A program made the position numbers and the translations under genes. The notes beneath the pieces are model-generated. The model was not told the DNA's origin. It made no database searches and saw nothing but the letters and a program-made list of their open reading frames with translations. DNA of 64,000 nt from a virus, in IMG/VR virus record IMGVR_UViG_3300038760_000071, positions 1-64,000 of that record; one strand, given 5' to 3'. Positions 1,681 through 46,004 of the stretch are shown in pieces; within the stretch, counting starts at the first letter, position 1; each line of letters opens with the position of its first letter.

Positions 1681-2043
1681 GCAATTAAACTTATATCTCC
1701 AATCCGGCCCAAGGGGTGAATACACCCGCACTATAGCAGTATTAGTGGGGTGGTTTTTTAAAATAGATACAGTACTTAGAGCGCTAGTAAAAACGAAAGG
1801 AAACCCATCCGGTGCGATAGGTAGATTGCCCAACTCTGGTATAGGTCCCTTCGCTGTTAACCCACCAACAAAAACATTTCTATGACTGCCACCATAGTTA
1901 TAAACATAACTACCAATATAATAGGTATCTAAAACTATATTGGAGCTAAACTCAACTATATATCTCTCTGGTTTATTACCCGGGTCATAATGAAATAGAC
2001 ACTGAGACGGTACAGTCGAGGTCGGTGTCGGTGTAGGGGCCAT
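1..2043 (-). CDS. Mucin-like Pro/Thr/Ser-repeat protein with N-terminal paralogous module (partial, C-terminus beyond left edge)
   Basis: Reading the minus strand from an ATG at 2043 gives an open frame that reaches position 1 without a stop (681 codons), so the gene runs off the window. Residues ~20-125 form a globular module with landmarks [25 protein letters not shown] and VRVYSPL. The same module occurs in the next two genes upstream. The rest is [15 protein letters not shown]-type repeats, broken once by a short non-repetitive stretch (~250-205). [11 protein letters not shown] unit near 1210 matches [10 protein letters not shown] in the 2414-5368 protein, which confirms the frame. The gene starts 17 nt after the upstream stop, so it is probably co-transcribed. 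Its place after the fibre genes suggests a virion-surface or host-contact role, which is inference. Two other long frames through the repeat are by-products of repeat periodicity. Confidence 0.8.
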
Positions 2044-2060
2044 ACCACAACTCAGTAACA

Positions 2061-2414
2061 CTAAGTTTGATAGACCGGGCATCCCATAGTAAATTCCCAA
2101 TTGGGTTCAGCAAGGGGAGAGTATACACGGACAATTGCTTCGTCTATTAAAATGTCGTTGTTAAAGGTTAGCGTTCCTGTAGTGGGTGTAAAAACATAAG
2201 GTAGACCATCAGGAGCAATTGGTAAATTATACAGCTCCGGAATAGTATTTGATGTAAAGCTATTAACAAAATCACCTCGTAGATAACCACCAAAATCATA
2301 TGCACTGCTACCTACGTAGAATGTGTCAATAACAATAGCAGAATTATACTCTACAATATACCTCTCCGGCTTTTCACCTGTACTGAAGTTAAATGATGTG
2401 GTTAAGGTTGACAT
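2061..2414 (-). CDS. Stand-alone copy of the PTS-protein globular module
   Basis: 117 residues, with no signal peptide or membrane segment. The landmarks [29 protein letters not shown] and VRVYSPL match the N-terminal module of the downstream gene and the module at ~727-832 of the upstream 984-residue protein. It lacks the Pro/Thr/Ser tail entirely. Its ATG overlaps the upstream stop (TAATG), a translational-coupling arrangement. I do not recognise the module as a named family. Three homologous copies in three adjacent genes suggest duplication followed by loss or gain of the repeat tail. A role as a small surface or adhesin subunit is inference. Confidence 0.75.
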
Positions 2415-5368
2415 TATGGTATTGGTGTTACTGGTGGTGTTTTCGAGGGTGTAACTGAAGGTGGTTCTGGAACACCAGATGGTAGTGGTATAGTTGGTGT
2501 TATAGATGGTGTAGCAGTAACTGATGGTGTTGGTGATACTGATGGAGAAGCTGCTGGGGTAGCTGGTGGTGTAGCTGATGGTGTAGGTGCCGGTGGAGAT
2601 GGTGGTACGTATCCTTCTGATGGTGTAGGAGATGGTGTTACAGGTGGAGTATATGGTATAAATCCAAGTGAAGTTGATGGGGTTATAGATGGTGTTATCG
2701 AAGGTGTAACAGTAACAGATGGTGTAGGTGATATAGCTACTGGGGATGTGCTCGGAGTAGGTGTTACTGAAGGTGACACTGGTGGTGTTGGATTAATAAG
2801 TGTTATTATTTGCTCAGCTGGGTAATATTTATTTACACCACACTCAAAGGTAACTGTTTCACCACATGTAATTTTTCTATATGGGCAGCCAATATAAACC
2901 TCCCAATCTTTACCAGATAGAGGGTCATACACATGGGTTGCAATTCTATTTTTATCGGTATCCTTATAGAATGTTGATAAAGCATATGCTACTGTGGAAT
3001 CAATATAAGGATATCCGTCTGGTGCTACACTTAAGCCTGTAAATTGGGTATAACCACTATCAGTAAGACCTGCAATAAATGTCTGTCGGTCACCTCCTGT
3101 ATAATTATAGGAATCATTACCTACGTAGCCTGTATCAACTACATCAACGCCATCATAATTAAATATAAACCTAGTTGGGTATGATGTTGCATTCCATTCA
3201 ATATCAACAGTACCTATTGTACCAGAAATGTCATACAATACAGTCGGTATTAAGTTACTATCCGAATTACTATATGTGGCAGATAAGCCACATAATAGGT
3301 TAGGATACCCAATCGCTGGCTCCATTCCTAGGAATGGTAGTATACCAATATCTTCTTTTTCTGGAACAGGTTCTGCCGGATTTCCCAATATAGTATTGTC
3401 AATACTAAAAGAAGATAGTTGAGTAAAGCTGTTGGTAGTCGTCTCCGGAGCTTCGGCTTTGCCTTCAACATGAAAATTATCAATTATAACATTTAGATCA
3501 GTGCTGCCTTTAGAGATGTTCTTAACAAATGATACTCCAGGTCTGAACTTAGTTGAGGTAGTAAAATTAAGCTCTATATTTTGTTCAAAGATATTAATGT
3601 AGTCATAATCTTCCAGTCTCTTATAGTCAACATAAATGGTTCTACCATAATTACCAAGTCTAGCTCTAAGTGTTTTGACACCATCACTAAGCAGATCAAA
3701 AGCTGAAATGGCTACATTACCTGCTAGATACTGATAACTTGATGCTTGATCCCCTCGTAGAGAGATGCTATTTGGCTTGCGTTCATTATACTGGTAACCA
3801 GAACGTATAGTATTATCAGCCAATTTTGCTTGTGCACCATAAACACCTAGATTATCCATACCAACACCAATAACACCTCCCTGGAGCCCTATTGATTTTT
3901 CATACGATCCGGCAGTATATTGTATTCCGGAATAACCTAAATTAATACCACGTCCACCATAATCGAGATCTACACTCGCATCTTGTAAAAATAAACATAG
4001 GCCAAAGCTATCATTTTCATCCCACGCGGTTAATTCATAGTTAAATGACCATGTAATGTCATATAGCGGTGATACCCCCTTTTCATATACTGTAACTGGT
4101 GACCCAGCTGATGGTATAGAGGCAGCCGGTGAAGGTGTTATAGAGGGTGTTACCGTTGGTGTTATTGAAGGTGTTACAGATGGTGTATGTGTAACAGATG
4201 GTGTAACAGATGGTGTTGGTGGTATATAACCTTGAGATGGTGTAACTGAAGGTGTTACTGATGGTGTCGGTGTTACTGATGGTGTTGATGTTACTGATGG
4301 TGTAACTGATGGTGTAACAGTAGGTGTAGGGGTTACTGAAGATGTTGGTGTTACTGTTGGTGTAACTGATTGTGTAACAGAAGGGGTGGGGGTTACTGAA
4401 GATGTTGGTGTTACTGTTGGTGTTTTAGATGGTGTTGGTGGTATATAACCTTGAGATGGTGTAACTGAAGGTGTTACTGATGGTGTCAGTGTTACTGATG
4501 GTGTTGGTGTGACAGATGGAGACGCTGTTGAGGTTGGTGATGGGTCTGGTGGTATATAATCTTTTGTTGTTGAGGGTGTTATTGAAGGTGTAGGTGTTAT
4601 TGAAGGTGTAGGTGTTATTGAAGGTGTTGGTGTTATTGATGGTGTAGCAGTAACAGATGGTGTTGGTGTTATTGAAGGTGTCGGTGTTATTGATGGTGTT
4701 GGTGTTATTGAAGGTGTTGGTGTTATTGAAGGTGTTGGTGTTATTGAAGGTGTTGGTGGTATATAATCTTTAGATGGTGTTATTGAAGGTGTAGGTGTTA
4801 TTGAAGGTGTAGGTGTTATTGAAGGTGTAGGTGTTATTGAAGGTGTAGGTGTTATTGAAGGCGTAGGTGTTATTGAAGGTGTTATTGAAGGTGTAGGTGT
4901 TATTGAAGGTGTAGGTGTTATTGAAGGTGTTACTGTTGGTGTGTGAGATGGGGATAGATCTGGTGGTATATAATCTTTTGTTGTTGAGGGTGTTATTGAA
5001 GGTGTAGGTGTTATTGAAGGTGTTGGTGTTACTGTTGGTGTTTTAGATGGTGTTGGAGGTATATAATCTTTAGATGGTGTTATTGAAGGTGTAGGTGTTA
5101 TTGAAGGTGTAGGTGTTATTGAAGGTGTTATTGATGGTGTCGGTGTTACTGTTGGTGTGTGAGATGGGGATGGATCTGGTGGTATATAATCTTTTGTTGT
5201 TGAGGGTGTTATTGAAGGTGTTGGTGTTATTGAAGGTGTTGGTGTTATTGAAGGTGTTGGTGTTATTGAAGGTGTTGGTGTTATTGAAGGTGTTGGTGTT
5301 ATTGAAGGTGTTGGTGTAACAGACGGGGTCGGTGTTATTGAAGAGGTGGGTGTAACAGACGGAGACAT
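2414..5368 (-). CDS. Large Pro/Thr/Ser-repeat protein with lectin-like domain
   Basis: 984 residues. Residues ~1-420 are [11 protein letters not shown] repeats interrupted by GYIPPTPS and KDYIPPDPS motifs. Residues ~430-660 are globular and resemble an L-type lectin/concanavalin A-like beta-sandwich: an acidic FGLCLFLQD stretch, [11 protein letters not shown], then [14 protein letters not shown]. Residues ~727-832 hold the module shared with the next two genes, with landmarks [15 protein letters not shown] and VYDPL. A second repeat tract fills ~855-984. Upstream, a TAAATA box lies 9 nt before the ATG. The arrangement, with extended mucin-like stalks separating beta-rich domains, suggests a surface fibre or adhesin. 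The lectin assignment rests on pattern only and no carbohydrate-binding residues were confirmed. Confidence 0.75.
4115..5350. repeat. Tandem repeat encoding the N-terminal PTS stalk
   Basis: Repeats of ggtgttattgaaggtgta and close variants, with unit lengths that are multiples of 6 bp. About every 150-300 bp they are interrupted by a segment reading ggtggtatataa(t/c)c on the plus strand, which encodes the YIPP motif. They are closely related to the 1-1680 repeat, so recombination between the two tracts is possible. Confidence 0.85.
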
Positions 5369-35044: not shown

Positions 35045-37396
35045 TTACCCACCGATGATCTCCTCAAAGTTTGCATCCGTAGAGGTGGCGTAGAAATTCA
35101 CCAATATAAATTCTGCTGTACGTACCGGTTTTAGATATATATCTACAACCAACTCATTCTGGTCAATAACAGTAGGTGTATTGTTACGTTCATCACAAAC
35201 AATAATATAATCATATAGACCATCATCCGCTTTAACTCTCTCAAAGAATGGAGTTAATGTATTAACAACACGTGTTCTTGTGAATAGTGTATTATTCTCA
35301 AACAAGAAATACTGCATTGTGCGCTTTGTAATCTTTTCCAAGTAGATGAATGTTCTTCGAACATTGATTCTATCAAACGCACTAGGCTTTCTAAGAAGGG
35401 TCTTTTGTCCAAAGAATACATTACCTTGATCTGCGAGAGTTGTAATAGGGTTTAAATTTGATGTATATAAATCATCTCGCTGTCTCTGGTTTGGTGAGAG
35501 TGCAATATCACTAGCATCTGTTATAATACCTCTATTTAAACCAGCCGGCGCACCCCATGGGCCGATCTGAGCATCTGTACTAGCCATTTTAGCGGAAGCG
35601 AAGCCAGACGGTGGTACATACACATATAAACCGGAGTAGTTGTCATACACCTTCATATAGTTCGCGTAGACAGTTGCATATGAAGTGTTTGCTAGCTCAA
35701 ACTGATGTCTTAATGCCCAATATGCATGAACATAAAAGTTTTTAGTTTTATCATCTTGAATTTTGTTATCCTTACCAGTTACTACGATCTGTCTAATCGG
35801 GTCTGCAATATATAGAATATCACCTCTACCACCATCTTTAACAGGTCCACAGAAAGTAGCAAACTTATTAAAGATTGTAGTATATGCTGTCCTAGCTTTT
35901 GTACCTGTAGCATTTAGATCATTTGATGTTCTTAGAGCTTCGATAGATGTAGTTGTACGAGTATCATCATAACCATACCCGGAGAGCGAAGCACTTGCTG
36001 TTTGGTTATATGTCCATATGGAACCAATACCACCCTCAGCAATAATATCAATATTAAATTTCCTATCATTCCTGATTCGATCAAGCGCGCGATCCAGTTT
36101 CTGTGGAATGTTGCCGGCTACCTTTGTCTCTAAGTTTGTTTCACCATAAGCACCTAACGCATATATTGAATCAGCCGTCCCAATGGCATTAATCGCGTCG
36201 GTCATAAAGGATCCGTCGGCGTATCCAGCACCAACAATCGATGATAAAATATTGCCATTTGTAAAATTATCAGATAAGGATTGAGTTAAAACTCTCAATT
36301 TCGTTCTAGGGGTACCATCAGAATTAAGCTTAACACCACTTATCTGATCAGACAAAAACGGGTTAACAATAATATCAATATTTCTAGAGTCATTCTCAAC
36401 ATTTTCTAAGAAGTAGTTAATTGGTGCACCACCATTATCGGAATTACGTTGTCTATAATAACCGATTGACCCATTATAACCTTCCTCTAATAGATAATCT
36501 AGTCTGTTTGCCTCTTTAGAGAAAACAGATTGTCTAAGCTTAAAGACTCCAATATTGAGAGCGTCATCAAATTCTCTAGTGGAAATGTCATAACCAGTGA
36601 TTCGATCCTCCATCACTTGTGAGATGGAGTTTGTCGCCGGGTTATCGCCAAACTCTGGTGTAGCTGATAGAGCAAATTCCAACCTACTGGTTGGCACTGT
36701 TGTATATGAATCAATACCAGATACACTAGCAGACTGTGTTACTGTCTCAACACTTAGGATAGACTCAAAAGCACGTGCTGGGTTAATATTAGTATTATCT
36801 GCAATACCTAAATAATATCCATTAAACTGACCATCAATAACAGTCTGAGATTTGTTAACTACAATTAAAGCTGCACCTGATAAGGCTGTAAGCGTTTTCC
36901 AACTGGTAGGGGCGGTGGCTGCTGAACCCCAACCGACAGGAAATAGCTCACCACTTTTAAGTTGTAAGTATTCCTGCTCTGTAATATTATATTGTTTAGG
37001 TGCACCTAAGAAATAAGAGCCTGCGCTTACAGTAAAGTTTTGTGTAGCTACTTCTGCAGTTCTATCATAACCCTTGGCGGGGTATGCTAAAACACTGTAA
37101 TAAGAACCAAACCCGTCACCACCGGCCTCACCATATGGTAATCGATTAACTAGCAAACTACCTGTAGAGTTTAGTGCTGCTCTAGCAGTATGATAAAAGT
37201 ATCTCTCAGCCGGTGTTCTCGGTGATCCGTAAATTTGCTCAAATTCAGTAATATTGCTCACCCCAACTACTTCATCTGTTGGACCTTGGTTCGCAAACCC
37301 GGTAATGTAGGTAGTTGTACCCTGTGAAACAGTTCTTAGGGAGAGATCACTTTCTCGGATCTCAACCCCTGGCGATTGTATTGTGCGCTTGGACAT
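35045..37396 (-). CDS. 18: Tail sheath protein gp18-like
   Basis: 783 residues; T4 gp18 has 659. The N-terminus (QSPGVEIRESDLSLRTVSQGTTTYITGFANQGP) is a textbook sheath start, followed by FEQIYGSP. The C-terminal sheath core reads VRRTFIYLEKITKRTMQYFLFENN, then VVDIYLKPVRTAEFILVNFYAT. It contracts during injection. The extra length lies in variable middle domains. CATAAATA lies 5 nt before the ATG, and a strong terminator follows the gene. Confidence 0.93.
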   Translation of the reverse strand: MSKRTIQSPGVEIRESDLSLRTVSQGTTTYITGFANQGPTDEVVGVSNITEFEQIYGSPRTPAERYFYHTARAALNSTGSLLVNRLPYGEAGGDGFGSYYSVLAYPAKGYDRTAEVATQNFTVSAGSYFLGAPKQYNITEQEYLQLKSGELFPVGWGSAATAPTSWKTLTALSGAALIVVNKSQTVIDGQFNGYYLGIADNTNINPARAFESILSVETVTQSASVSGIDSYTTVPTSRLEFALSATPEFGDNPATNSISQVMEDRITGYDISTREFDDALNIGVFKLRQSVFSKEANRLDYLLEEGYNGSIGYYRQRNSDNGGAPINYFLENVENDSRNIDIIVNPFLSDQISGVKLNSDGTPRTKLRVLTQSLSDNFTNGNILSSIVGAGYADGSFMTDAINAIGTADSIYALGAYGETNLETKVAGNIPQKLDRALDRIRNDRKFNIDIIAEGGIGSIWTYNQTASASLSGYGYDDTRTTTSIEALRTSNDLNATGTKARTAYTTIFNKFATFCGPVKDGGRGDILYIADPIRQIVVTGKDNKIQDDKTKNFYVHAYWALRHQFELANTSYATVYANYMKVYDNYSGLYVYVPPSGFASAKMASTDAQIGPWGAPAGLNRGIITDASDIALSPNQRQRDDLYTSNLNPITTLADQGNVFFGQKTLLRKPSAFDRINVRRTFIYLEKITKRTMQYFLFENNTLFTRTRVVNTLTPFFERVKADDGLYDYIIVCDERNNTPTVIDQNELVVDIYLKPVRTAEFILVNFYATSTDANFEEIIGG

Positions 37397-37401
37397 AAAA
37401 T

Positions 37402-37409
37402 TATTTATG
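37402..37409 (-). promoter_or_regulatory. Late promoter box of the sheath gene
   Basis: Minus-strand CATAAATA followed by atttt and the ATG at 37396. Confidence 0.65.
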
Positions 37410-37447
37410 GTATTTTACACAATAATTGCTAGTTTCTAAAACCTTAT

Positions 37448-38023
37448 TTATAAATTAAGCAATTTAGTATGTAACTGAGAATAAACAAAAGTCATAGAAG
37501 TGTTTATTTCGGCTGCGTCTCTGTAATTATACGCAATATTACCCAAAACTGTAGGAAATGCTTTAGTGTATGTAAACTGTATTCGTTTGTTTTCATACTC
37601 ATCAACACCATATATTGTCATATCAGTCTGATAGTTACTATATTCACTACTAACAAGATTATCAGCATCATACAGACCCGTTTTATCATCATGCATTAAA
37701 TCTAACCATTTATATATTACCCAATAGTTATTAAACTCGTTATCAACTGTAAAGTCGATAGTAACCGGTGGGTAAGCATCTCTAGCATGTGACGATTGAT
37801 AGAGGGTATTCCCCGCGTAAGGTATTTTCATAGCAGGTACAACTAGCTCTGGAACAACAGTACCATAAATTGAAAATTGGAATGAATCTTCAGAAACATT
37901 AAATGATGCCCGAGTATCTCTTTTCTGAACTTTACGTAATGCTAGTGGTAGCTGGAAAACCATTATAAATTTGTCTATCCGGCCCTTATTGAGTAGGGAT
38001 TGTTTATTTACATTTGTAGGCAT
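37448..38023 (-). CDS. Tube-fold tail protein
   Basis: 191 residues. DKFIMVFQLPLALRKV is followed by FQFSIYGTVVPELVVPAMKIPYAG, a strand-rich core PPVTIDFTVDNEFNNYWVIYKWLDLMHDD, and a C-terminal ALG-type strand pair. This fits the gp19-like tube fold. It lies between the terminase and the sheath, where some T4-like phages carry a second tube-like or tail-completion protein. It could be a tube-terminus protein (gp3-like). CATAAATA lies 5 nt before the ATG. Confidence 0.55.
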   Translation of the reverse strand: MPTNVNKQSLLNKGRIDKFIMVFQLPLALRKVQKRDTRASFNVSEDSFQFSIYGTVVPELVVPAMKIPYAGNTLYQSSHARDAYPPVTIDFTVDNEFNNYWVIYKWLDLMHDDKTGLYDADNLVSSEYSNYQTDMTIYGVDEYENKRIQFTYTKAFPTVLGNIAYNYRDAAEINTSMTFVYSQLHTKLLNL

Positions 38024-38028
38024 AATAA

Positions 38029-38036
38029 TATTTATG
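38029..38036 (-). promoter_or_regulatory. Late promoter box, N5 before ATG
   Basis: Minus-strand CATAAATA followed by ttatt and the ATG at 38023. It overlaps the end of the terminase C-terminal gene. Confidence 0.6.
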
Positions 38037-39525
38037 CTAAAGGCTCATATCCAAACATTGATAGCTCATTCATATCATCTTGAGCTTGATCAGCACCCAT
38101 ACCGAAAACTATAGGCGGTAAGCAAGAATTATTATCACCCACTATTTCATTATCTAAATATAAAGATGTTGCATCTTCAAAATATTGAATACCGAAATCC
38201 ATTTGTTCAATAGTAGCAGGTTTACCTCGCTCATCTAGTTCCACAATTTCAAAAAATCTTTCTGTTATTTCTTTCTCTAGAATGAACAGAGCGTATAGCA
38301 ATGACATCACTCTATCATCATGATGACTTCTCCTAGCCTTCCATGTACCGTTTGGCCATCGAACAAAATTCTTAAGCTCAGTTAAAGTTTCTATATCATT
38401 AATCTGAACTGCTCGTACATCATTAATAAAATATCGCATGTTTAATACACCCTGATATTTTGTATTAGTATGAGCAATCATACCTAGCATTATATTTTTC
38501 CTATGAGCCGCTTTATTACCATATGATACAATTTTCTCATATCCCATATCATTCGCTAACCTATCTACAACTTGTGCACCACAATTATTACGCTCAATTA
38601 ATGCCAACGGCATGCCGTAGTTACGGAGAACAGAATATACCTTAGTTGCAAATTCAAGAGGAGGTATTTTATTGCTAGTATAACAAGCAACCTGCCGTAT
38701 ATCTTTAATATCTGTTATATCTAATATTTGTATACATGATGAGTCGGCACCAACACCCTCCGCTGTATCAACACCAGCAACATAAACACGTGATGGGTCT
38801 GCCTCTTCCCATATCTTATAATGACCATCATCTAAAATAATTTTTGGATCTCGAGTCTTAGAAACCATCTCCTCAAATAAATCATCATCAATTGATGATT
38901 CACCTGTTGATAAAAATTCGCAATTAAATTCTTGTCTCCACGCATCATTTGATCCAATTGCCTGTCTAGTAGATTTAACCCAATCATCATCTCTATCCGG
39001 CACTTCATGCCACATAATTTTATCATGCGCCCAGCCATTTTCACCATCCACTGCACCCTTATATAATGTATGAAATAGATTATCATTACCATTTGCGGTA
39101 CTACATACAAATACCTTGGATTTCTTCGACGATGTAATTACTGGAAAAACTGACTTCCAAAACTCCTCAATTAGGTGAGTGTTATGGGAGAGAATACCGT
39201 TAGTATAATACTTATGCGTCCTCTCAACCTCAACAAAATCATAAACCTTCTCTTCACGACCAATATCAATAATATCAACAACCTCACATAGACCATCTAC
39301 AGTTTTAATTCTATGACCTATTGAATCACATGCAAGAATAACATCCCCAGCTGCATCAATAAACCCATGGTTTTTAGATACGTGTATATAATCACCGTTA
39401 TCTAAAACAACTTGAAATAGCTTCTTCTTTGAATATTCAGCAATACCCTTAAAGTCTCTCCAACCCTCATCTGTTTCTATTTCCCATTCATCATTAGGAA
39501 TGAATCTTTCTATATCTTCTCGCAT
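38032..39525 (-). CDS. 17: Terminase large subunit, C-terminal piece, preceded by C-intein B
   Basis: 497 residues. Residues 1-115 are a C-intein ending THKYYTNGILSHN, so Thr116 is the +1 residue. Residues 116-497 are the rest of TerL: HLIEEFWKSVFPVITSSKKSK and VFVCSTANGNDN (ATPase coupling region), then the RNase H-like nuclease with acidic sites in VAGVDTAEGVGADSS and SHHDDRVMSLLYA. It aligns with T4 gp17 directly after the Walker B segment, so the N-terminal half of the ATPase must come from the other two pieces. The start lies inside the preceding endonuclease gene (16 nt overlap). Trans-splicing is predicted, not shown. Confidence 0.9.
   Translation of the reverse strand: MREDIERFIPNDEWEIETDEGWRDFKGIAEYSKKKLFQVVLDNGDYIHVSKNHGFIDAAGDVILACDSIGHRIKTVDGLCEVVDIIDIGREEKVYDFVEVERTHKYYTNGILSHNTHLIEEFWKSVFPVITSSKKSKVFVCSTANGNDNLFHTLYKGAVDGENGWAHDKIMWHEVPDRDDDWVKSTRQAIGSNDAWRQEFNCEFLSTGESSIDDDLFEEMVSKTRDPKIILDDGHYKIWEEADPSRVYVAGVDTAEGVGADSSCIQILDITDIKDIRQVACYTSNKIPPLEFATKVYSVLRNYGMPLALIERNNCGAQVVDRLANDMGYEKIVSYGNKAAHRKNIMLGMIAHTNTKYQGVLNMRYFINDVRAVQINDIETLTELKNFVRWPNGTWKARRSHHDDRVMSLLYALFILEKEITERFFEIVELDERGKPATIEQMDFGIQYFEDATSLYLDNEIVGDNNSCLPPIVFGMGADQAQDDMNELSMFGYEPLA
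39181..39525 (-). other. C-intein B (115 residues)
   Basis: It contains block B (YIHVSKNHGFI), block F (YDFVEVERTHKYY) and block G (NGILSHN, with penultimate His and terminal Asn). Only block A is missing; it sits on the 30-residue N-intein B at the end of the middle gene. The split between blocks A and B is the atypical position known from AceL-TerL-type inteins. Confidence 0.88.
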
Positions 39526-40685
39526 AAGTCTTCTTTTGTTATTATCTTAAAAGCATAATCATTCTCTCTACACCACAATCGAGCTGCTTCAAACTTCGAC
39601 TGATTCAAAGGTTGATTTACAAACTCACGTGGCTTTACCTCGTATAATACTTTATTTACCTGATCACAAAAATCGACAATGTAAACTCGTTCCTTATTAT
39701 CATATGTGTAAGGAATTCGAATTAATTCATAATCTAAATGAGGATTATTTTCATGAAACATTACCTCCCAACTACTACGATAATTATTAAGTCCAGTTAA
39801 CTCTGAATATAACTTTTTATTGGAATATCTGTTGTTTGTATTTGGTGTAAATTCTCCGGTTAAAATCTTATTCCTCATAACATCGCTCATCTTTTTATAT
39901 ATTCCCCTAGCTCTATTTTTTTTTGTGAGTTTATCTCTCTTATCTTTTGTCCACGTCTTCTTATTTGACGTAGATATCTTGCTTTTTGTTGTTTCGCTAT
40001 GATGGTATCCCCTACGAGATTTCACTCTCCGCTCTTTAACATCACCAGATTGCAAATAAGACAAATCACGATCCTTCCCAATAGTACTCAAAACATCACT
40101 AATACATCGCTTCTTACTACACGTTTTATTCAAGAAGAATGTATTCCTATTTTTAAAGCTGCAATAATCACCACATATACAGTATATTGAATCATTACAC
40201 ATACTTGCAAATTTATATTTAATATCCTCAATACCTTCTGTATGTTTAGATATATTGTGAATTAAGTCCTTATCATTTAGCAATGATGTATAGGCTGCTC
40301 GTTGAACATAGTCAGATAATCGTAGCATCGTCTCATCCGGAGGCATTGATATACCATCTTCAAAGATACCATCTTTTAATCTATCAATAAAGGATGCAAT
40401 TGACTTTCCACTAAACGACACACCACCTTTAACATAGCCACGTTTATAGCTAATAAACTTCAAGTCTGGTAGGTAGTCGACATCATTAACTATATGATAT
40501 AACTTTTGACCGAGTGGTAGCTCATCTAACGTAGGTGTATCTCTATAATACTCATTTATAAAATTATAAACCTTCTCACCATCTTCGTATTTATCATACC
40601 ATGCTCTATAATATGAGTTTTTATTAAGCTTCTTATCCTCAAAGAAATCAACTATACATGACTGCATATAACGTTTATCGATCAT
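39510..40685 (-). CDS. Free-standing PD-(D/E)XK homing endonuclease at split B
   Basis: 391 residues. The N-terminal region is helical, followed by a Cys-rich segment (CICGDYCSF, then CSKKRC), a NUMOD-like basic helix region (YHHSETTKSKISTSNKK) and a C-terminal nuclease. The nuclease residues are visible as E307 in YRSSWEVMF, D338 in YIVDF, and E349-x-K351 in LYEVKP. It is placed exactly between the N- and C-intein halves of split B, so it likely cuts uninterrupted terL alleles and spreads the break. It has its own CATAAATA box 5 nt before the ATG. It appears complete. Confidence 0.75.
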   Translation of the reverse strand: MIDKRYMQSCIVDFFEDKKLNKNSYYRAWYDKYEDGEKVYNFINEYYRDTPTLDELPLGQKLYHIVNDVDYLPDLKFISYKRGYVKGGVSFSGKSIASFIDRLKDGIFEDGISMPPDETMLRLSDYVQRAAYTSLLNDKDLIHNISKHTEGIEDIKYKFASMCNDSIYCICGDYCSFKNRNTFFLNKTCSKKRCISDVLSTIGKDRDLSYLQSGDVKERRVKSRRGYHHSETTKSKISTSNKKTWTKDKRDKLTKKNRARGIYKKMSDVMRNKILTGEFTPNTNNRYSNKKLYSELTGLNNYRSSWEVMFHENNPHLDYELIRIPYTYDNKERVYIVDFCDQVNKVLYEVKPREFVNQPLNQSKFEAARLWCRENDYAFKIITKEDLCEKI

Positions 40686-40690
40686 ATATT

Positions 40691-40698
40691 TATTTATG
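40691..40698 (-). promoter_or_regulatory. Late promoter box of the endonuclease gene
   Basis: Minus-strand CATAAATA followed by aatat and the ATG at 40685. Confidence 0.6.
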
Positions 40699-41161
40699 TC
40701 TTTTGGATAATATTCTCAATACTTCTTGTGACTATCTCCCCTGTATTTTTATTACGTAGCCTTACTGTAGTATCTTTAGACACACACTCAATGAAAGCCA
40801 TCTCATCAATCACTAAGCATTGATGACTTAATACACCGTTAGCGTAATATGTATGAGTTTTCTCAACTTCTAGCAGCTCGTATACTTTACTATCATCAGT
40901 GTAAGTGGCAATATCGGTAATTTCAATACCACCATATAATTTATTTTTAATTAAAAGATCTTTTGCATAAACGATCTCCTCGTTTTCTGCTAACAGTTTA
41001 TGTAGAGGTGTACATATTAACTCTTTATCACTAGAGAGTGTGAGTTTAATTTTTGAAGGGTTACTACCGATTATAAGCCCTTTAAAGTCTCTGAAACCGT
41101 CGTTTGTTAGTACTTGATATTTGCTATTTTTAAAGCATTTATATTTTGTTAAGTCTGCCAT
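40694..41161 (-). CDS. 17: Terminase middle piece: C-intein A, 11-residue Walker B extein, N-intein B
   Basis: 155 residues. 1-114 form a C-intein (block B at ELICTPLHKLL, block F at VYELLEVEKTHTYY, block G ANGVLSHQ). 115-125 read CLVIDEMAFIE, the hydrophobic strand plus Asp-Glu of a TerL Walker B motif. 126-155 (CVSKDTTVRLRNKNTGE onward) are a new N-intein. Joining the extein to RGQSVN upstream and THLIEEF downstream reproduces the gp17-type order. Almost the entire polypeptide is therefore intein, carrying one catalytic strand. A degenerate AAAATA lies 5 nt before the ATG. C-inteins A and B are clearly homologous (DGFRDFKG / EGWRDFKG). Confidence 0.88.
   Translation of the reverse strand: MADLTKYKCFKNSKYQVLTNDGFRDFKGLIIGSNPSKIKLTLSSDKELICTPLHKLLAENEEIVYAKDLLIKNKLYGGIEITDIATYTDDSKVYELLEVEKTHTYYANGVLSHQCLVIDEMAFIECVSKDTTVRLRNKNTGEIVTRSIENIIQKT
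40787..40819 (-). other. 11-residue terminase extein carrying the Walker B motif
   Basis: Encodes CLVIDEMAFIE: Cys is the +1 residue for split A, and Glu is the last residue before Cys1 of N-intein B. The Asp-Glu pair is the Mg/catalytic pair of the packaging ATPase. Confidence 0.85.
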
Positions 41162-41165
41162 CTTA

Positions 41166-41990
41166 CTATTTTATTTTTGTTTCGAGATTTGTACCTCTTT
41201 TTGGGAAGCATTTAGGACAAGCGGGTCTATGACCAATAGATAAATCATGATAAAATCTAGCGTCACACTCTTGACATACCCATTTATATTTTTTATACAG
41301 TGCAACTCCGTTATACGTCTCATCCAACTTAACGTTATAATCTGTCTCAATTTTAGAGATTAATTTAACTTGCTTTGTAAAAATGGCGCGCTGCGTAATA
41401 GCCTCAGATTGCATTGGGTTATCTACACCATATTTTTCATTCAATGTCTTTCGAGCTTTATTTTTATAATCTTCAGTCTGAAAAAAGTGATCAACACCGT
41501 ATTTTAAGTTATTATGTTTAACTCGTGTTGTCTTAAGCTTAGATATATCGCTACACGTTTTATTACTCCATGTATTAATCACTTTACTTTTAAAATCCTC
41601 GCTCTGCTGGTATATCTCGCTCCCGTATTTCTCCTGGTTGGTTGCCTTACTATGTGATTGACCGGCTTTTGATTGCAACCAAGACGTTGCACCATATTTC
41701 TCTATATTAGTTAATTTAATCTCCTCAACATTATATTTATTACTACATTTACGACAACAAAACTTACCATACCCGGATTTAAAATCCCGGTATTTGAGAA
41801 TACTATTACACTGCATGCATGTTGGTGTCTCTGATATATTATGACACACATTATACGCATTACGAGCAAATGTTAACTCAGAGTCATATAGTTCATGTTG
41901 CTTTATAAATGTCACTTCATCACCGTGGAGATATTTCGGAAAAACCTTAGGTATATTTGTAAGCGTTAATAGTACACTATTCACATCCAT
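41166..41990 (-). CDS. Free-standing endonuclease gene at split A, nuclease end missing
   Basis: 274 residues from the ATG at 41990, which is 5 nt after an ATAAATA box; a longer upstream reading would overlap the terminase gene without such a signal. It has an N-terminal zinc-ribbon-like region (CMQCN, then CCRKCSN) and four tandem DNA-binding-type repeats around EKYGVDNPMQSEA / KYGSEIYQQSEDFKSKV. A second ribbon follows (WVCQECDARF, then ACPKCFPKRG). Proteins of this build normally continue into a Vsr-like nuclease, but here the gene stops a few residues after the ribbon (TNLETKIK). No downstream continuation exists because the next gene starts 4 nt later. Probably a decaying homing gene. 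Confidence 0.65.
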   Translation of the reverse strand: MDVNSVLLTLTNIPKVFPKYLHGDEVTFIKQHELYDSELTFARNAYNVCHNISETPTCMQCNSILKYRDFKSGYGKFCCRKCSNKYNVEEIKLTNIEKYGATSWLQSKAGQSHSKATNQEKYGSEIYQQSEDFKSKVINTWSNKTCSDISKLKTTRVKHNNLKYGVDHFFQTEDYKNKARKTLNEKYGVDNPMQSEAITQRAIFTKQVKLISKIETDYNVKLDETYNGVALYKKYKWVCQECDARFYHDLSIGHRPACPKCFPKRGTNLETKIK

Positions 41991-41995
41991 AATAG

Positions 41996-42003
41996 TATTT
42001 ATT
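41996..42003 (-). promoter_or_regulatory. Late promoter box at split A
   Basis: Minus-strand TAATAAATA followed by ctatt and the ATG at 41990. It supports the internal start chosen for the endonuclease gene. Confidence 0.5.
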
Positions 42004-42042
42004 ACCCAATTGGGTAAAGCCACCGGTAAAGGTATTATATTT

Positions 42043-43737
42043 TTAATTGTCCAGGAATATAGGAAGTAACTCCCCACCTTCAAATTCAGCTGCTAACTCC
42101 TCCATGGAGCAATCAAATGTTAACCCAGTTTCTTTATCTTTCAACGTTATTATTGTCTCCCCGTCGACACAGTTGACGGATTGGCCACGGGCTGCTGACC
42201 CGGTCGTAGTAGTAATACCTATACGAGAGCCATTCTCAAGGGTCATGGACGTTTTGGCATATTCTTTAACAGGCGGCTTAAGCCAGTTAGGTAGTTCCTC
42301 ATATGCCATCCGAACTCTTTGAAATATTTCAATCGCAGTAGCTTCTTTGTTAGCTACTAGCAATATTCGCTGATCTGCATTAAAGCATGCTTGCCAGAGG
42401 ATATAAATTGTCATCATTGTCGAGTTGTGAGTAGGTATATACTGATTACCTGCGAGAAATTGCGAATCTTCACTATCAACAGTTATACACCTAACAGGAA
42501 CCGATTCAACAAGCTCTATATTCTTTATAAAGTGATACTGCCCCCTTATTTTAAAGTTATGCTTCTTCTCTTGATGCTTTATTCTTTTCTGCTTAAACGA
42601 TAATAGAGCTACATCTTCAATTGGTTTAAATGTTATAGATGAGCATGGCTTACATTCCACACCATTAAGTGTCGGTATATAGTCTTTTAATGTAACCTTA
42701 TACCCTAGACTTTCAGTTAACTGCTTTACCTGTCTAGTGAGATTCTTATTTGTGTTATAAAACTGACATGTACCTGCTTTATTTATATAGCCATCACTAT
42801 CAACTAAACCTTGCAGTAACTGTAATCGTTGCTCTCTACTCGCTAACATATAATCAACGGGTATATGTTTATTATTGAGTAAGTTATTATGTCTTAATAA
42901 CGAACTAAGACTCTTTGTTTGTATATCAGACTCAACAGTAGGGCGAATAAAATAATTTTTCGAATTGTAGTTTTTAATAATAAGCTTATCAAATTGCTCT
43001 ATCTTATCAAATATTTTAATCTGTTCGTCTATATCTCTATGACCAACTGTTATTGTACCGGTAGCAGATGTACCATCACCTAACCACAAGCCTAGGACAT
43101 AGGGATGTATAGGTAATTCTTTCTCTATACCCCCAACACCATTAATACATGTTGGTATTCTGTGATTAGGCTCAGGTCTCTTCTTACCACTATATAGTGT
43201 GTCTAAAATATCTCTTGTTGTCTTAACTGACCCACTACACTCCTTTCTACGATCACCCCTCGTCTGAGTAAACCATAAATGATCACCATCTGCAACTATC
43301 TCCTCCCCGTTATCAAATGTTACTTTATAACAGTCACGATCATATAATACATCATGCGCTTTTAAAACACTACACTGATCACCCTTATTATCGTATATAA
43401 CATCACCAGATTTAATAGACCCCATATCCATCCACCCGGTTGGTGTTGGTATTGGTGTATCTAATGCTAGTGCCTTACCTATCTGTCTACTTGCTAGCTG
43501 TATAAAGAATCGATTATCTCTCATCTTACGGATGGCTCGCTTTTGAGCAGGATATAGCTTAATAGTCTCACGCCCACGATCAAGATTAATAATATAGAAA
43601 TAATTTTCAGCAAAATAGAGTATATTCTGACTCGCTTTCTTAAGCGCGTTCACTTGCGATGTAGTATATTCACCTTTCCAGTTAACATTTGGTAGGTTTT
43701 TGTTACCCATGTAGAACATATTACTTTGCTGAGCCAT
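42043..43737 (-). CDS. 17: Terminase large subunit, N-terminal piece, with contiguous intein and N-intein A
   Basis: 564 residues. Extein 1-88 ends FFIQLASRQIGK. An intein occupies 89-438. Extein 439-522 begins STMMTIYILWQACFN and ends GSAARGQSVN. 523-564 (CVDGETIITLKDKETG onward) are an N-intein, then a stop. Removal of the first intein restores SRQIGKST, the TerL Walker A motif. The ATPase then lacks Walker B, which is on the next piece. With all inteins removed the four exteins total 88+84+11+382 = 565 residues; T4 gp17 has 610. TATAAATA lies 6 nt before the ATG, divergent from the 43771 gene. Confidence 0.92.
   Translation of the reverse strand: MAQQSNMFYMGNKNLPNVNWKGEYTTSQVNALKKASQNILYFAENYFYIINLDRGRETIKLYPAQKRAIRKMRDNRFFIQLASRQIGKALALDTPIPTPTGWMDMGSIKSGDVIYDNKGDQCSVLKAHDVLYDRDCYKVTFDNGEEIVADGDHLWFTQTRGDRRKECSGSVKTTRDILDTLYSGKKRPEPNHRIPTCINGVGGIEKELPIHPYVLGLWLGDGTSATGTITVGHRDIDEQIKIFDKIEQFDKLIIKNYNSKNYFIRPTVESDIQTKSLSSLLRHNNLLNNKHIPVDYMLASREQRLQLLQGLVDSDGYINKAGTCQFYNTNKNLTRQVKQLTESLGYKVTLKDYIPTLNGVECKPCSSITFKPIEDVALLSFKQKRIKHQEKKHNFKIRGQYHFIKNIELVESVPVRCITVDSEDSQFLAGNQYIPTHNSTMMTIYILWQACFNADQRILLVANKEATAIEIFQRVRMAYEELPNWLKPPVKEYAKTSMTLENGSRIGITTTTGSAARGQSVNCVDGETIITLKDKETGLTFDCSMEELAAEFEGGELLPIFLDN
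42046..42171 (-). other. N-intein A (42 residues)
   Basis: Starts at Cys1 with block A CVDGETIITLKDKETG and ends shortly after (LLPIFLDN) at a stop codon. Its C-terminal partner starts 885 nt further along the strand at 41161, beyond the endonuclease gene. Confidence 0.88.
42424..43473 (-). other. Contiguous LAGLIDADG intein in the Walker A motif
   Basis: 350 residues, from Ala89 (ALALDTPIPTPTGW) to Asn438 (QYIPTHN), +1 residue Ser439. LAGLIDADG-type helices are visible at YVLGLWLGDG (213-222) and LLQGLVDSDG (307-316), with acidic residues intact. The first intein residue is Ala rather than Cys or Ser, which implies the splicing route in which the +1 residue attacks directly. Confidence 0.88.
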
Positions 43738-43743
43738 TGAAAA

Positions 43744-43751
43744 TATTTATA
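43744..43751 (-). promoter_or_regulatory. Late promoter box of the terminase N-terminal gene
   Basis: Minus-strand TATAAATA followed by ttttca and the ATG at 43737. It forms a compact divergent pair with the 43758 box within 33 bp. Confidence 0.7.
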
Positions 43752-43757
43752 CCTAGA

Positions 43758-43765
43758 CATAAATA
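43758..43765 (+). promoter_or_regulatory. Late promoter box, N5 before ATG
   Basis: CATAAATA followed by aatat and the ATG at 43771. Confidence 0.65.
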
Positions 43766-43770
43766 AATAT

Positions 43771-44772
43771 ATGTCTACAAAAGATTTAATGAATTTAGGT
43801 CAGGTATACGGTACAATATTTAACGACTTTAAAAAAACTATTGTCAAAGAAAGTACCGTGCCTAAAGGTGAAATTGGAAACGCGGATCTCGAGCAGAAAG
43901 GTGGTCCTGAAGAGACTGCCGGTTATAGCAGCGATAGAGTTGATATAGAAGATGAAGATCAAAAAAGTAATGATTATAACATTAAAGGTCTTTCATACGG
44001 TAAGGGTAATAATCCAGGCAATACACAAAGCCCTCAACCAACTACAGGTGATGCTGCTCTATTAGGTATTGTAGGTGACGGAGACGAGGATGAGGAAGAT
44101 ACTAAAAATGATGAATATCCATATGAATGTGACTGTGGTGAAACGTGGAAGACAAAGGACGCTGCATCGCAATGTAGTACTTGCCAGGGGCACAGTAATA
44201 TACACGATGAGGATGAAGAAATTTTACATGAAACAGAGAAAATTGCGAGGAATGGACTAAATAATTTTATGAAGCGAAAATCAGTCTTTGATAAACTTTA
44301 CGATAAGGTCATGGTTAGTGAAAACTTTGGTGAATTAGAACCCAGTGATCTTGACTCCCTCGGGTTAGATGACGCTGTACCAGATAGTGAACTAGGTGAT
44401 GAAGGTGAAGATGGTGATGAAATCACCGTTACCCTTGATCGTTCAACAGCCCAAGCTTTATGTGATGTATTGCAAGCAGCTATCGGGCATAGTGAAGATG
44501 GTGACGAAGATTTTGGTGCCGGTGATAGTGATGATGGGTTTGATGGGTTCGATGGTGAAGAGGATGAAGAGGGCGCACCAACCGCACTAAACACATCTTA
44601 TAATGATGGAAAGTCCAATAAAGTTGGATCACTTAAAGCAAAAGGTGGGGCGACATTTAAAGGTACTAACATAAAGGTAGATACAGGCTCCACCCACTCC
44701 GGCAGCTATAATGATGGTAAAAATAACAAGGTTGGTAACCTCAAAACCAATCAATCAGCTTTCGAGCAGTAA
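43771..44772 (+). CDS. Acidic late virion-type protein with zinc ribbon
   Basis: 333 residues, very acidic (tracts such as GDGDEDEEDTKNDE and GDSDDGFDGFDGEEDEE). A C4 zinc-ribbon-like segment lies near 118-140 (YECDCGETWKTKDAASQCSTCQGH). A helical region follows (NGLNNFMKRKSVFDKLYDKVM). Two copies of a SYNDGK-NKVG-LK unit stand near the C-terminus. Late promoter, own terminator, next to neck genes: a capsid, prohead or scaffold-associated role is plausible but unproven. Confidence 0.6.
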   Translation: MSTKDLMNLGQVYGTIFNDFKKTIVKESTVPKGEIGNADLEQKGGPEETAGYSSDRVDIEDEDQKSNDYNIKGLSYGKGNNPGNTQSPQPTTGDAALLGIVGDGDEDEEDTKNDEYPYECDCGETWKTKDAASQCSTCQGHSNIHDEDEEILHETEKIARNGLNNFMKRKSVFDKLYDKVMVSENFGELEPSDLDSLGLDDAVPDSELGDEGEDGDEITVTLDRSTAQALCDVLQAAIGHSEDGDEDFGAGDSDDGFDGFDGEEDEEGAPTALNTSYNDGKSNKVGSLKAKGGATFKGTNIKVDTGSTHSGSYNDGKNNKVGNLKTNQSAFEQ

Positions 44773-44795
44773 TACTAACATATAACACATAATAA

Positions 44796-44829
44796 AAAAG
44801 GCCCGCTGGTGTGAATCAGCGGGCCTTTT
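44796..44829 (+). terminator. Rho-independent terminator
   Basis: Stem AAAAGGCCCGCTG / CAGCGGGCCTTTT with an 8-nt loop, 23 nt after the stop of the acidic gene. A-tracts on one side and T-tract on the other allow it to act in both directions. Confidence 0.88.
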
Positions 44830-44833
44830 GTAT

Positions 44834-44839
44834 TAAATA
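44834..44839 (+). promoter_or_regulatory. Late promoter box, N5 before ATG
   Basis: ATTAAATA followed by tatac and the ATG at 44845, directly behind the terminator, so the two transcripts are separated. Confidence 0.5.
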
Positions 44840-44844
44840 TATAC

Positions 44845-45171
44845 ATGATTACCTTCCTAGAATATTTTAAAGGTGATAAATATATGAACCCTATGCAGAG
44901 ATCTGGTAAGAATCTCTACGGTGGTGTAGATAGAAAGCACCAAAATAATGTAAAGAAGGAATATAATTCAAAATGCCCCCATGTTAACAACTTACTAAAT
45001 GGTGGAGCAGCTCAAATAAAACTGATGGGTGCACCTCTTATGCAGACATTATCTTCATATAATATGGACTATCAACCAGGTACAGTAAAGGTGCTAGGCA
45101 ACTCCGGAGTTGAGGTTAAGATGTACGAAGACGGAGAAAGTAATCAATGTGGAATCTTGACTAGACGATAA
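44845..45171 (+). CDS. Small late hypothetical protein
   Basis: 108 residues, basic N-terminus (MITFLEYFKGDKYMNPMQRSGK) and a polar C-terminus (VKMYEDGESNQCGILTRR). No recognised domain. It is placed between the acidic virion-type gene and the neck gene, with its own late box, so a minor virion or head-tail joining role is possible. Confidence 0.6.
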   Translation: MITFLEYFKGDKYMNPMQRSGKNLYGGVDRKHQNNVKKEYNSKCPHVNNLLNGGAAQIKLMGAPLMQTLSSYNMDYQPGTVKVLGNSGVEVKMYEDGESNQCGILTRR

Positions 45172-45216
45172 CATGGTATGCCTTGAATCTAGACTTATAA
45201 AGCAAGCCTGTAGCCA

Positions 45217-45222
45217 TAAATA
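45217..45222 (+). promoter_or_regulatory. Late promoter box of the neck gene
   Basis: CCATAAATA followed by aatgt and the ATG at 45228. Confidence 0.6.
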
Positions 45223-45227
45223 AATGT

Positions 45228-46004
45228 ATGCCTTGCAACTCTGCTCGAATTAATTGCACGCCAGCTGAGATTTTTGCAGCTACTGCAATACCAGCATGTG
45301 GTAAGCTTGTCAATCCTGAGAATTTACAAGCAGAGCAGCTCATATATGATCAATCATATAATGACTTAATTAATAATTTTGGCATTGGGGTACAATATTA
45401 TATTAACCCATTCAACCTATCAGCAGCTAACCTACTATATGGTGAGGAACCAACAAAGGTATTTAGGGGTCCGATTGATATCCAAATGTATATAGAGTTA
45501 GATGAAAACTCTATTAATCTAAGTAAATTTGGTTTTGATGCTGCTGATGACTTTACAGGTTACGTACATATTGATACATTCACTACAGCGGCGTCTGCTA
45601 TTTTTGACTATTCAAGTGTTGGTCAAGATATAGAGCCAAAATCAGGTGACCTTATTGTTATGCAGTCGCTTAGCTGTGATAGACCAAACGGCCGAGGACC
45701 AAAAATATATGAGATTACTGAGCGAAGAGATGATGATATATCTTCAATTAATCCCATGCTTGGTCATTATGTGTATAGGTTAAGAGCTAAGCGATATGAA
45801 TATTCGTTCGAACCTAACGCGCCAAAAGAGCCAGTAAACGATCAGATATATGAAAATGCATTTTCTGGTGTACTCTCTACTAACATACCAGGAGATAGTG
45901 TATCTGAAAATAAAACATACACATGGGATATAAACGATGAATCTCAAGTTAACATATATAACATGGATAACAACGATACAGACATATATGGATCTTACTA
46001 CTAG
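45228..46004 (+). CDS. 14: Neck protein gp14-like
   Basis: 258 residues; T4 gp14 has 256. IGVQYYINPFNLSAANLLYGEE parallels the gp14 segment in which a YY-x-P turn precedes a LhhGE motif. GYVHIDTF and EPKSGDLIVMQ, then KIYEITERRDD, match the gp14 order of strand, KEGDLI and FEI. gp14 with gp13 forms the connector to which tails attach. The convergent neighbour starts 43 nt beyond its stop, with no hairpin seen between them. Confidence 0.75.
   Translation: MPCNSARINCTPAEIFAATAIPACGKLVNPENLQAEQLIYDQSYNDLINNFGIGVQYYINPFNLSAANLLYGEEPTKVFRGPIDIQMYIELDENSINLSKFGFDAADDFTGYVHIDTFTTAASAIFDYSSVGQDIEPKSGDLIVMQSLSCDRPNGRGPKIYEITERRDDDISSINPMLGHYVYRLRAKRYEYSFEPNAPKEPVNDQIYENAFSGVLSTNIPGDSVSENKTYTWDINDESQVNIYNMDNNDTDIYGSYY

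What the first reader, a model, noticed from the sequence alone, without database searches (positions are those of the whole stretch)
38032..43737. Three-gene terminase rebuilt by three inteins, with a central extein of only 11 residues
Seen directly: the N-terminal gene ends in a block A intein start after RGQSVN. A second gene is C-intein, CLVIDEMAFIE, N-intein. A third is C-intein followed by the rest of TerL. A fourth, contiguous intein sits in the Walker A motif. Joining the exteins gives IGK-STMM, RGQSVN-CLVIDEMAFIE and AFIE-THLIEEF, the correct gp17 order. Both split inteins break between blocks A and B, as in the known atypical AceL-TerL intein. Fractured genes with split inteins and an endonuclease gene between the halves have been described in environmental viral data. 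I know of no case with two such breaks bracketing a single catalytic strand. The packaging motor would depend on two correctly paired trans-splicing events between paralogous inteins.
Basis: partly seen in the sequence, partly recalled or inferred. Interest (0 to 1): 0.95.

Follow-up and report, generated by a model that had tools for sequence, protein, structure and literature searches.

The report
Phage packaging motor spliced from three genes
A T4-like phage encodes its essential DNA-packaging motor protein in three separate genes that two self-splicing "split inteins" must join in order, the middle gene supplying only the 11-residue ATP-hydrolysis strand; related phages carry the same gene broken into as many as four pieces.

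Summary
On the minus strand, 38032-43737 encodes a gp17-type large terminase (TerL) in three genes: exteins 1a and 1b plus a 42-residue N-intein; C-intein, CLVIDEMAFIE, N-intein; and C-intein plus the remainder. A contiguous intein sits in Walker A. The joined exteins give 565 residues, collinear without a gap (88% identical) with an uninterrupted allele (L002). The central extein is the Walker B strand. It is not a one-off or an assembly error: a near-identical second contig and three divergent lineages (L082, L051, L137) share the double break, and L082 adds a third split intein, giving four genes. Among 95 sequence clusters, 13 have two or more breaks. Intein halves are under purifying selection. 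The residue after the second junction is Cys/Ser/Thr in 17 of 17 occupied alleles but 5 of 49 unoccupied ones. The second module has moved between lineages with its endonuclease. A cultured Campylobacter phage (IBB_35) has an unrecognised analogue, published as "an intein and an intron". Splicing, pairing fidelity and absence of another terL in the incomplete genome remain untested. This is a new variant of fractured genes with split inteins.

The parts
43474..43737 (-). Extein 1a: TerL N-terminus to Walker A (ends SRQIGK)
42424..43473 (-). Contiguous (cis) intein W in Walker A, 350 aa, LAGLIDADG type; Ala1 and W/C/T residues suggest class 3
   Evidence: Pfam PF14528 and PF05204 over cut-off; class assignment from sequence reading and own knowledge
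42172..42423 (-). Extein 1b: STMMTIY...RGQSVN
42046..42171 (-). N-intein A, 42 aa, block A only, followed by stop
41166..41990 (-). Endonuclease ORF 1 (DUF7487-type homing endonuclease), 274 aa, C-terminally truncated relative to the 558-aa homologue in L048
   Evidence: Pfam PF24308 and phrog_3339; alignment
40820..41161 (-). C-intein A, 114 aa, ends SHQ (Gln-terminal)
   Evidence: TIGR01443 over cut-off; 6dsl match
40787..40819 (-). Extein 2: CLVIDEMAFIE, Walker B strand with catalytic Asp-Glu (aligns to T4 gp17 about 251-261)
40697..40786 (-). N-intein B, 30 aa, block A only, followed by stop
39510..40685 (-). Endonuclease ORF 2 (TnsA-like N domain, homing endonuclease), 391 aa, apparently intact
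   Evidence: PF08722 and phrog_15427; dN/dS 0.11-0.18
39181..39525 (-). C-intein B, 115 aa, ends SHN; start overlaps the end of endonuclease ORF 2 by 16 bases
   Evidence: TIGR01443 over cut-off; 6dsl match
38035..39180 (-). Extein 3: THLIEEF... to C-terminus, rest of ATPase and RNase H-like nuclease
   Evidence: PF17289 over cut-off; gp17 3ezk/3cpe E about 4e-22

Best explanation
The locus encodes one functional gp17-type large terminase in three translated pieces. Intein W splices itself out of piece 1 in cis. N-intein A (piece 1) pairs with C-intein A (piece 2) and N-intein B (piece 2) with C-intein B (piece 3). Two protein trans-splicing reactions excise the inteins and join RGQSVN-CLVIDEMAFIE-THLIEEF, restoring the Walker B strand and a 565-residue motor. 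Each split intein is, or was, a mobile module with a homing endonuclease gene between its halves. The two breaks arose by independent arrivals at neighbouring sites of a highly conserved sequence; the module at site A has since lost its nuclease while the split intein is kept because the gene now needs it. Shown: the pieces, motifs, collinearity, selection, conservation in relatives, horizontal movement of module B. Inferred: that splicing occurs, that it is essential, that pairing is specific.
For: Pieces and junctions in the sequence. Gap-free 565/565 alignment with the uninterrupted allele L002. Intein C-halves recognised by TIGR01443, by sequence to Cat 6dsl and VidaL 6vgv and by predicted fold (pLDDT 80; best Foldseek hit 6dsl_B E 7.8e-6). 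Each pair occurs alone in relatives: A only in L084, L086, L142, L145; B only in L164, L088, L093, L095, so each is a self-sufficient split intein. The double break is kept in L082, L051, L137. dN/dS about 0.09-0.20 for NIA, CIA, NIB, CIB; extein 2 shows synonymous but no amino-acid changes among window, L082, L051 and L048. Residue +1 of site B is C/S/T in 17/17 occupied clusters against 5/49 unoccupied (usually Pro), Fisher p 1e-11, not corrected for shared ancestry: the chemistry of splicing has shaped the extein. Walker A Lys, Walker B Asp-Glu and the nuclease acidic motifs are present. Module B tree conflicts with the extein tree (AU p 1e-5 and 3e-4), as expected of homing. No intron family found even at E up to 5; no second terL in the 80-kb record.
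Against: No splicing, proteomic or transcript data. The genome record is incomplete, so an intact terL elsewhere is not excluded. C-intein A ends in Gln, which can slow or impair the last step of splicing (own knowledge), although it is conserved in 11 of 12 aligned relatives scanned for it and in all four double-break lineages. GOS-TerL and AceL-TerL N-inteins are interchangeable (PMC11766414), so related N-halves can cross-react.
Confidence: 0.9

Rival explanations
1. The pieces fold together non-covalently without splicing, as reported for the nrdA gene-in-pieces interrupted by a homing endonuclease in T4-like phages.
For: Genes in pieces that work without ligation are known in T-even-like phages (Friedrich 2007, cited in PMC3322345).
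Against: The middle piece is an 11-residue buried beta-strand between 114-aa and 30-aa intein segments; it could hardly insert into the ATPase core unspliced. Intein residues stay under purifying selection and the +1 nucleophile tracks intein occupancy.
Confidence: 0.04
2. The intervening DNA is removed as group I/II introns at RNA level, as the terL of ICP1 and the published reading of IBB_35 suggest.
For: terL introns with nuclease genes are experimentally shown in phage ICP1 (PMC10448857); the IBB_35 paper proposed an intron (PMC3322345).
Against: No intron family match at E up to 5 over 36000-46000; the break sits exactly between intein blocks A and B with conserved intein halves on both sides; C-halves begin with their own start codons.
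Confidence: 0.02
3. Assembly chimera, sequencing frameshifts or a decayed, non-functional terL.
For: Metagenomic contigs can be chimeric; endonuclease ORF 1 is truncated.
Against: Second record 99.96% identical over 14 kb; divergent lineages keep the same pieces; strong purifying selection on exteins and inteins; no stop or frameshift within any extein.
Confidence: 0.02
4. Pairing is not fully specific: N-intein B reacts with C-intein A inside the middle protein (the layout used artificially for peptide cyclisation, SICLOPPS) and releases a cyclic CLVIDEMAFIE, or N-intein A reacts with C-intein B and makes a TerL lacking Walker B.
For: Middle gene has C-intein/extein/N-intein order; the AF2 model docks the N-intein B segment with pLDDT about 80, but such a model cannot tell cognate from non-cognate halves; AceL and GOS TerL N-halves interchange (PMC11766414).
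Against: A and B halves are only about 32-33% identical. N-intein A (-9) and C-intein B (-11) are both strongly negative in the window, with the same pattern in L082, L051 and L137, which disfavours the skipping reaction. The A+B layout has persisted in several lineages, so any side reaction is tolerated.
Confidence: 0.15

Closest known systems
Fractured genes with split inteins and free-standing endonucleases (Dassa et al. 2009; known to me from citations, text not held)
   Same: Split intein halves in separate genes with an endonuclease gene between them in phage core genes.
   Different: Two such breaks in one gene here (three in L082, L051 and L121), bracketing an 11-residue catalytic strand; one break keeps the split after loss of its nuclease.
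AceL-TerL, GOS-TerL and the consensus Cat intein (atypically split inteins of T4-type TerL)
   Same: Short N-half, break between blocks A and B, same host gene family; C-halves match CatC (6dsl).
   Different: By sequence those correspond to site C (QEFN|CEFL; in relatives here, not the window); A and B are other positions with other junctions.
Campylobacter phages vB_CcoM-IBB_35 and CP21 (Firehammervirus)
   Same: TerL with a cis intein in Walker A, a split intein before Walker B and a second intein just after CNIIVVDE.
   Different: Central extein 8 residues; second intein interrupted by an HNH nuclease in IBB_35 and contiguous in CP21; published as an intein plus an intron (PMC3322345).
Shewanella phage Thanatos-2 TerL (MT457553)
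   Same: TerL in two genes with a TnsA-like-tailed N-half and separate C-half.
   Different: One break only, at IDE|CAF.

Membership tests
T4 gp17-type large terminase | ATPase plus RNase H-like nuclease domains recognised by profile and by solved gp17 | tested here: met
   PF17289 over cut-off, phrog_2/phrog_36964; gp17 3ezk E 9e-57 for the intact allele L002
T4 gp17-type large terminase | Collinear with an uninterrupted homologue after joining | tested here: met
   565/565 columns, no gap, 88% identity
T4 gp17-type large terminase | Genomic order 17-18-19 | tested here: met
   tail tube 37448-38023 and sheath 35045-37396 follow on the same strand, though tube precedes sheath; same neighbour in L002, L048, L051
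Atypically split inteins | Short N-half ending between blocks A and B; C-half with blocks B, F, G | tested here: met
   42 and 30 aa against 114 and 115 aa; published range 15-37 aa (PMC13014065), so A is slightly long, perhaps with a tail
Atypically split inteins | HINT fold | tested here: met
   C-intein A model matches 6dsl, 6vgv, 6qaz
Atypically split inteins | Trans-splicing activity | not testable with these tools
   needs expression
AceL/GOS-TerL insertion-site allele | Insertion at the same TerL position | tested here: not met
   A and B are upstream; site C of L082, L048, L051, L071 has Ser1/Cys+1 and CatC-like sequence. AceL/GOS position taken from own knowledge
Fractured gene with split intein | Endonuclease gene between halves | tested here: met
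   Both breaks; the first ORF is truncated
Fractured gene with split intein | Mobility of the module | tested here: met
   Module B and extein trees conflict, AU p 1e-5 and 3e-4; empty alleles exist
Group I/II intron | Recognisable intron RNA | tested here: not met
   No match at E up to 5

The most novel reading that the evidence does not exclude
The middle gene is a natural SICLOPPS-type polypeptide (C-intein, 11-residue extein, N-intein) whose fate is partitioned between ligation into TerL and self-cyclisation or release, so that pairing fidelity between paralogous split inteins sets the amount of active packaging motor.
Probability: 0.07. Interest if true: 0.93.

Novelty: new variant of a known kind. 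Interest (0 to 1): 0.78.

Why it matters
Split inteins are known in nature as single breaks; assembling one essential enzyme from three or four separately translated pieces by two or three co-existing, related split inteins poses a pairing problem that engineers solve with chosen orthogonal pairs. Here evolution has done it repeatedly in one gene, around the ATP-hydrolysing strand. The loci give ready sets of naturally co-existing split inteins to test for orthogonality, a test case for how invasion by homing elements makes a gene dependent on them after the nuclease is gone, and a cultured system (IBB_35, CP21) whose annotation needs revising. A single tryptic peptide would prove both reactions.

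Tried and rejected
Intron reading: Rfam at E up to 5 found none. Assembly artefact: rejected by a second record and divergent relatives. Intact terL elsewhere: none in the 80,259-base record, but the record is partial. Bacterial genome collection: no relative of the middle gene. A DNA pattern for the 8-residue Campylobacter-type middle extein found nothing in viral contigs. TATAAATA (T4 late promoter) occurs upstream of gene 1 (43744-43751) but the window total does not exceed chance, so no promoter claim is made. Charge complementarity explains disfavoured A-N with B-C pairing but not the cognate A pair (-9 with -1), and B-only relatives vary (+4 to -11), so it is only suggestive. Literature search found no described natural gene with two split-intein breaks; Dassa 2009, Bachmann and Mootz 2015 and other subscription papers were not held, so priority is not proven. 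Joining of exteins was done in silico for alignment only.

Full report
WHAT IS THERE. On the minus strand of the window, 43737 down to 38032, five ORFs follow one another. Gene 1 (564 aa) contains TerL residues 1-88, a 350-aa contiguous intein, TerL residues 89-172 and a 42-aa N-intein, then stops. ORF 41166-41990 is a DUF7487-type homing endonuclease. Gene 2 (155 aa) contains a 114-aa C-intein, CLVIDEMAFIE and a 30-aa N-intein. ORF 39510-40685 is an endonuclease with a TnsA-like domain. Gene 3 (497 aa) contains a 115-aa C-intein and TerL residues 184-565. The boundaries are set by the block A start, the block G end, and the empty allele.

IT IS A TERMINASE IN THE RIGHT ORDER. The joined exteins make 565 residues and align without a gap to the uninterrupted TerL of L002, 499 of 565 identical. 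L002 aligns with T4 gp17 (3ezk, E 9e-57). The central extein falls on T4 residues about 251-261: the Walker B strand with its Asp-Glu (numbering by offset from the alignment, Walker positions from own knowledge). Tail tube and tail sheath genes follow. No other terL lies in the 80,259-base record, which is incomplete.

THE INTEINS ARE REAL AND ATYPICALLY SPLIT. Both C-halves pass TIGR01443 and match the consensus atypical intein Cat and VidaL. The AF2 model of gene 2 (12-sequence alignment, pLDDT 80) has the intein fold, best Foldseek hit CatC. The N-halves carry only block A. Published natural atypical N-halves are 15-37 aa (PMC13014065).

RELATIVES. Reading the relatives shows four insertion sites in this gene: W (Walker A, GK|S/T), A (N|C before Walker B), B (E|T/C/S after Walker B) and C (QEFN|C in the linker to the nuclease; its inteins have Ser1 and Cys+1 and resemble Cat, as reported for GOS-TerL). 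A alone, B alone and C alone all occur, each with its own halves, so each is a complete split intein. The double break A+B is in the window, its near-identical record L001, and in L082, L051 and L137 (the exteins of L137 are about 49% identical over extein 3). L082 has A+B+C: four genes and three different endonucleases (GIY-YIG-like, TnsA-like and a third type). L051 has A+B+C with only 60 bases and 5 bases left between the halves at A and C, so the split outlives the nuclease. L191 has inteins at all four sites, two split and two in cis, again with an 11-residue central extein. In more distant phages W itself is split (L106, L107, L121, L129, L131). By an automated count (stop codon between N-part and C-part, not checked by hand in every case), 95 clusters at 95% identity divide into 44 with no split, 38 with one, 10 with two and 3 with three.

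SELECTION AND CHEMISTRY. Pairwise dN/dS is about 0.09-0.20 for all four intein halves and the second endonuclease. Extein 2 differs among window, L082, L051 and L048 only synonymously. At site B the residue after the junction must be Cys, Ser or Thr for splicing: it is so in 17 of 17 occupied clusters, and in 5 of 49 unoccupied ones, most of which have Pro (not corrected for phylogeny). This is the strongest sequence-level sign that splicing happens.

MOVEMENT. For nine loci with a B module, the extein tree joins the window to L051 (AU rejects window+L082, p 1e-5) while the tree of endonuclease 2 plus C-intein B joins the window to L082 (AU rejects window+L051, p 3e-4). The split intein and its nuclease have travelled together between lineages. 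Endonuclease 1 of the window ends where its L048 homologue (558 aa) goes on into a C-terminal nuclease-like part: probably dead, while C-intein A remains constrained.

PAIRING. Halves A and B are about a third identical. N-intein A is -9 and C-intein B -11, so the skipping reaction is electrostatically unfavourable in the window and in L082, L051 and L137; N-intein B is +1 to +4 and C-intein B -9 to -13. The cyclising pair (N-intein B with C-intein A in one chain) is not excluded by charge, and homologous TerL N-halves (AceL and GOS) are interchangeable (PMC11766414). Gene 2 has exactly the layout of artificial peptide cyclisation. Fidelity is the open question.

PRIOR ART. Single split inteins in TerL are known. 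In the cultured Campylobacter phages IBB_35 and CP21, TerL has a W intein, a split A intein and a second intein after CNIIVVDE; the IBB_35 paper described this as an intein and an intron enclosing an endonuclease (PMC3322345). IBB_35 also shows a frameshift within the second C-intein in the deposited sequence, so its state is less sure. No paper found in the held library describes a natural gene with two split-intein breaks; key subscription papers were not available.

VERDICT. Confirmed observation, supported interpretation, recurrent rather than unique, unproven biochemically. New variant of a known kind.

Noticed in passing
40820-40822: C-intein A ends in Gln instead of Asn, conserved in all 12 rows of A5 down to 40% identity (one further A relative, L148, reads Asn): an atypical splicing end residue kept by selection.
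   Followed up: partly
42424-43473: The cis intein in Walker A begins with Ala and has Trp (block B), Cys (block F) and Thr (block G) at the places expected of class 3 inteins, so two splicing chemistries would act on one protein.
   Followed up: partly
L082 375-6246: TerL in four genes with three split inteins and three unlike endonuclease genes; joined exteins 565 aa without stops.
   Followed up: yes
L191 508-5467: TerL with inteins at all four known sites, W and B split, A and C contiguous, in three genes.
   Followed up: partly
L178 (HM246721) and L184 (HE815464): Cultured Campylobacter phages with a TerL broken around an 8-residue Walker B extein; annotation as intron and MobE endonuclease should be revised. 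Middle piece unannotated in CP21.
   Followed up: partly
L106, L107, L112, L121, L129, L131: In distant relatives the Walker A intein is itself split, giving further two- and three-break combinations.
   Followed up: partly
L176 (MT457553) 467-3567: Shewanella phage Thanatos-2 TerL is two genes with an intein at IDE|CAF, endonuclease fused to the N-half; annotated only as two terminase genes.
   Followed up: partly
2414-5368: 984-aa protein with long [15 protein letters not shown] repeats, and a matching repeat ORF region at 239-1684.
   Followed up: no
44726-44939: Cluster of sub-threshold matches to unrelated leader and sRNA families on both strands, most likely a strong hairpin between genes rather than any of those families.
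   Followed up: no
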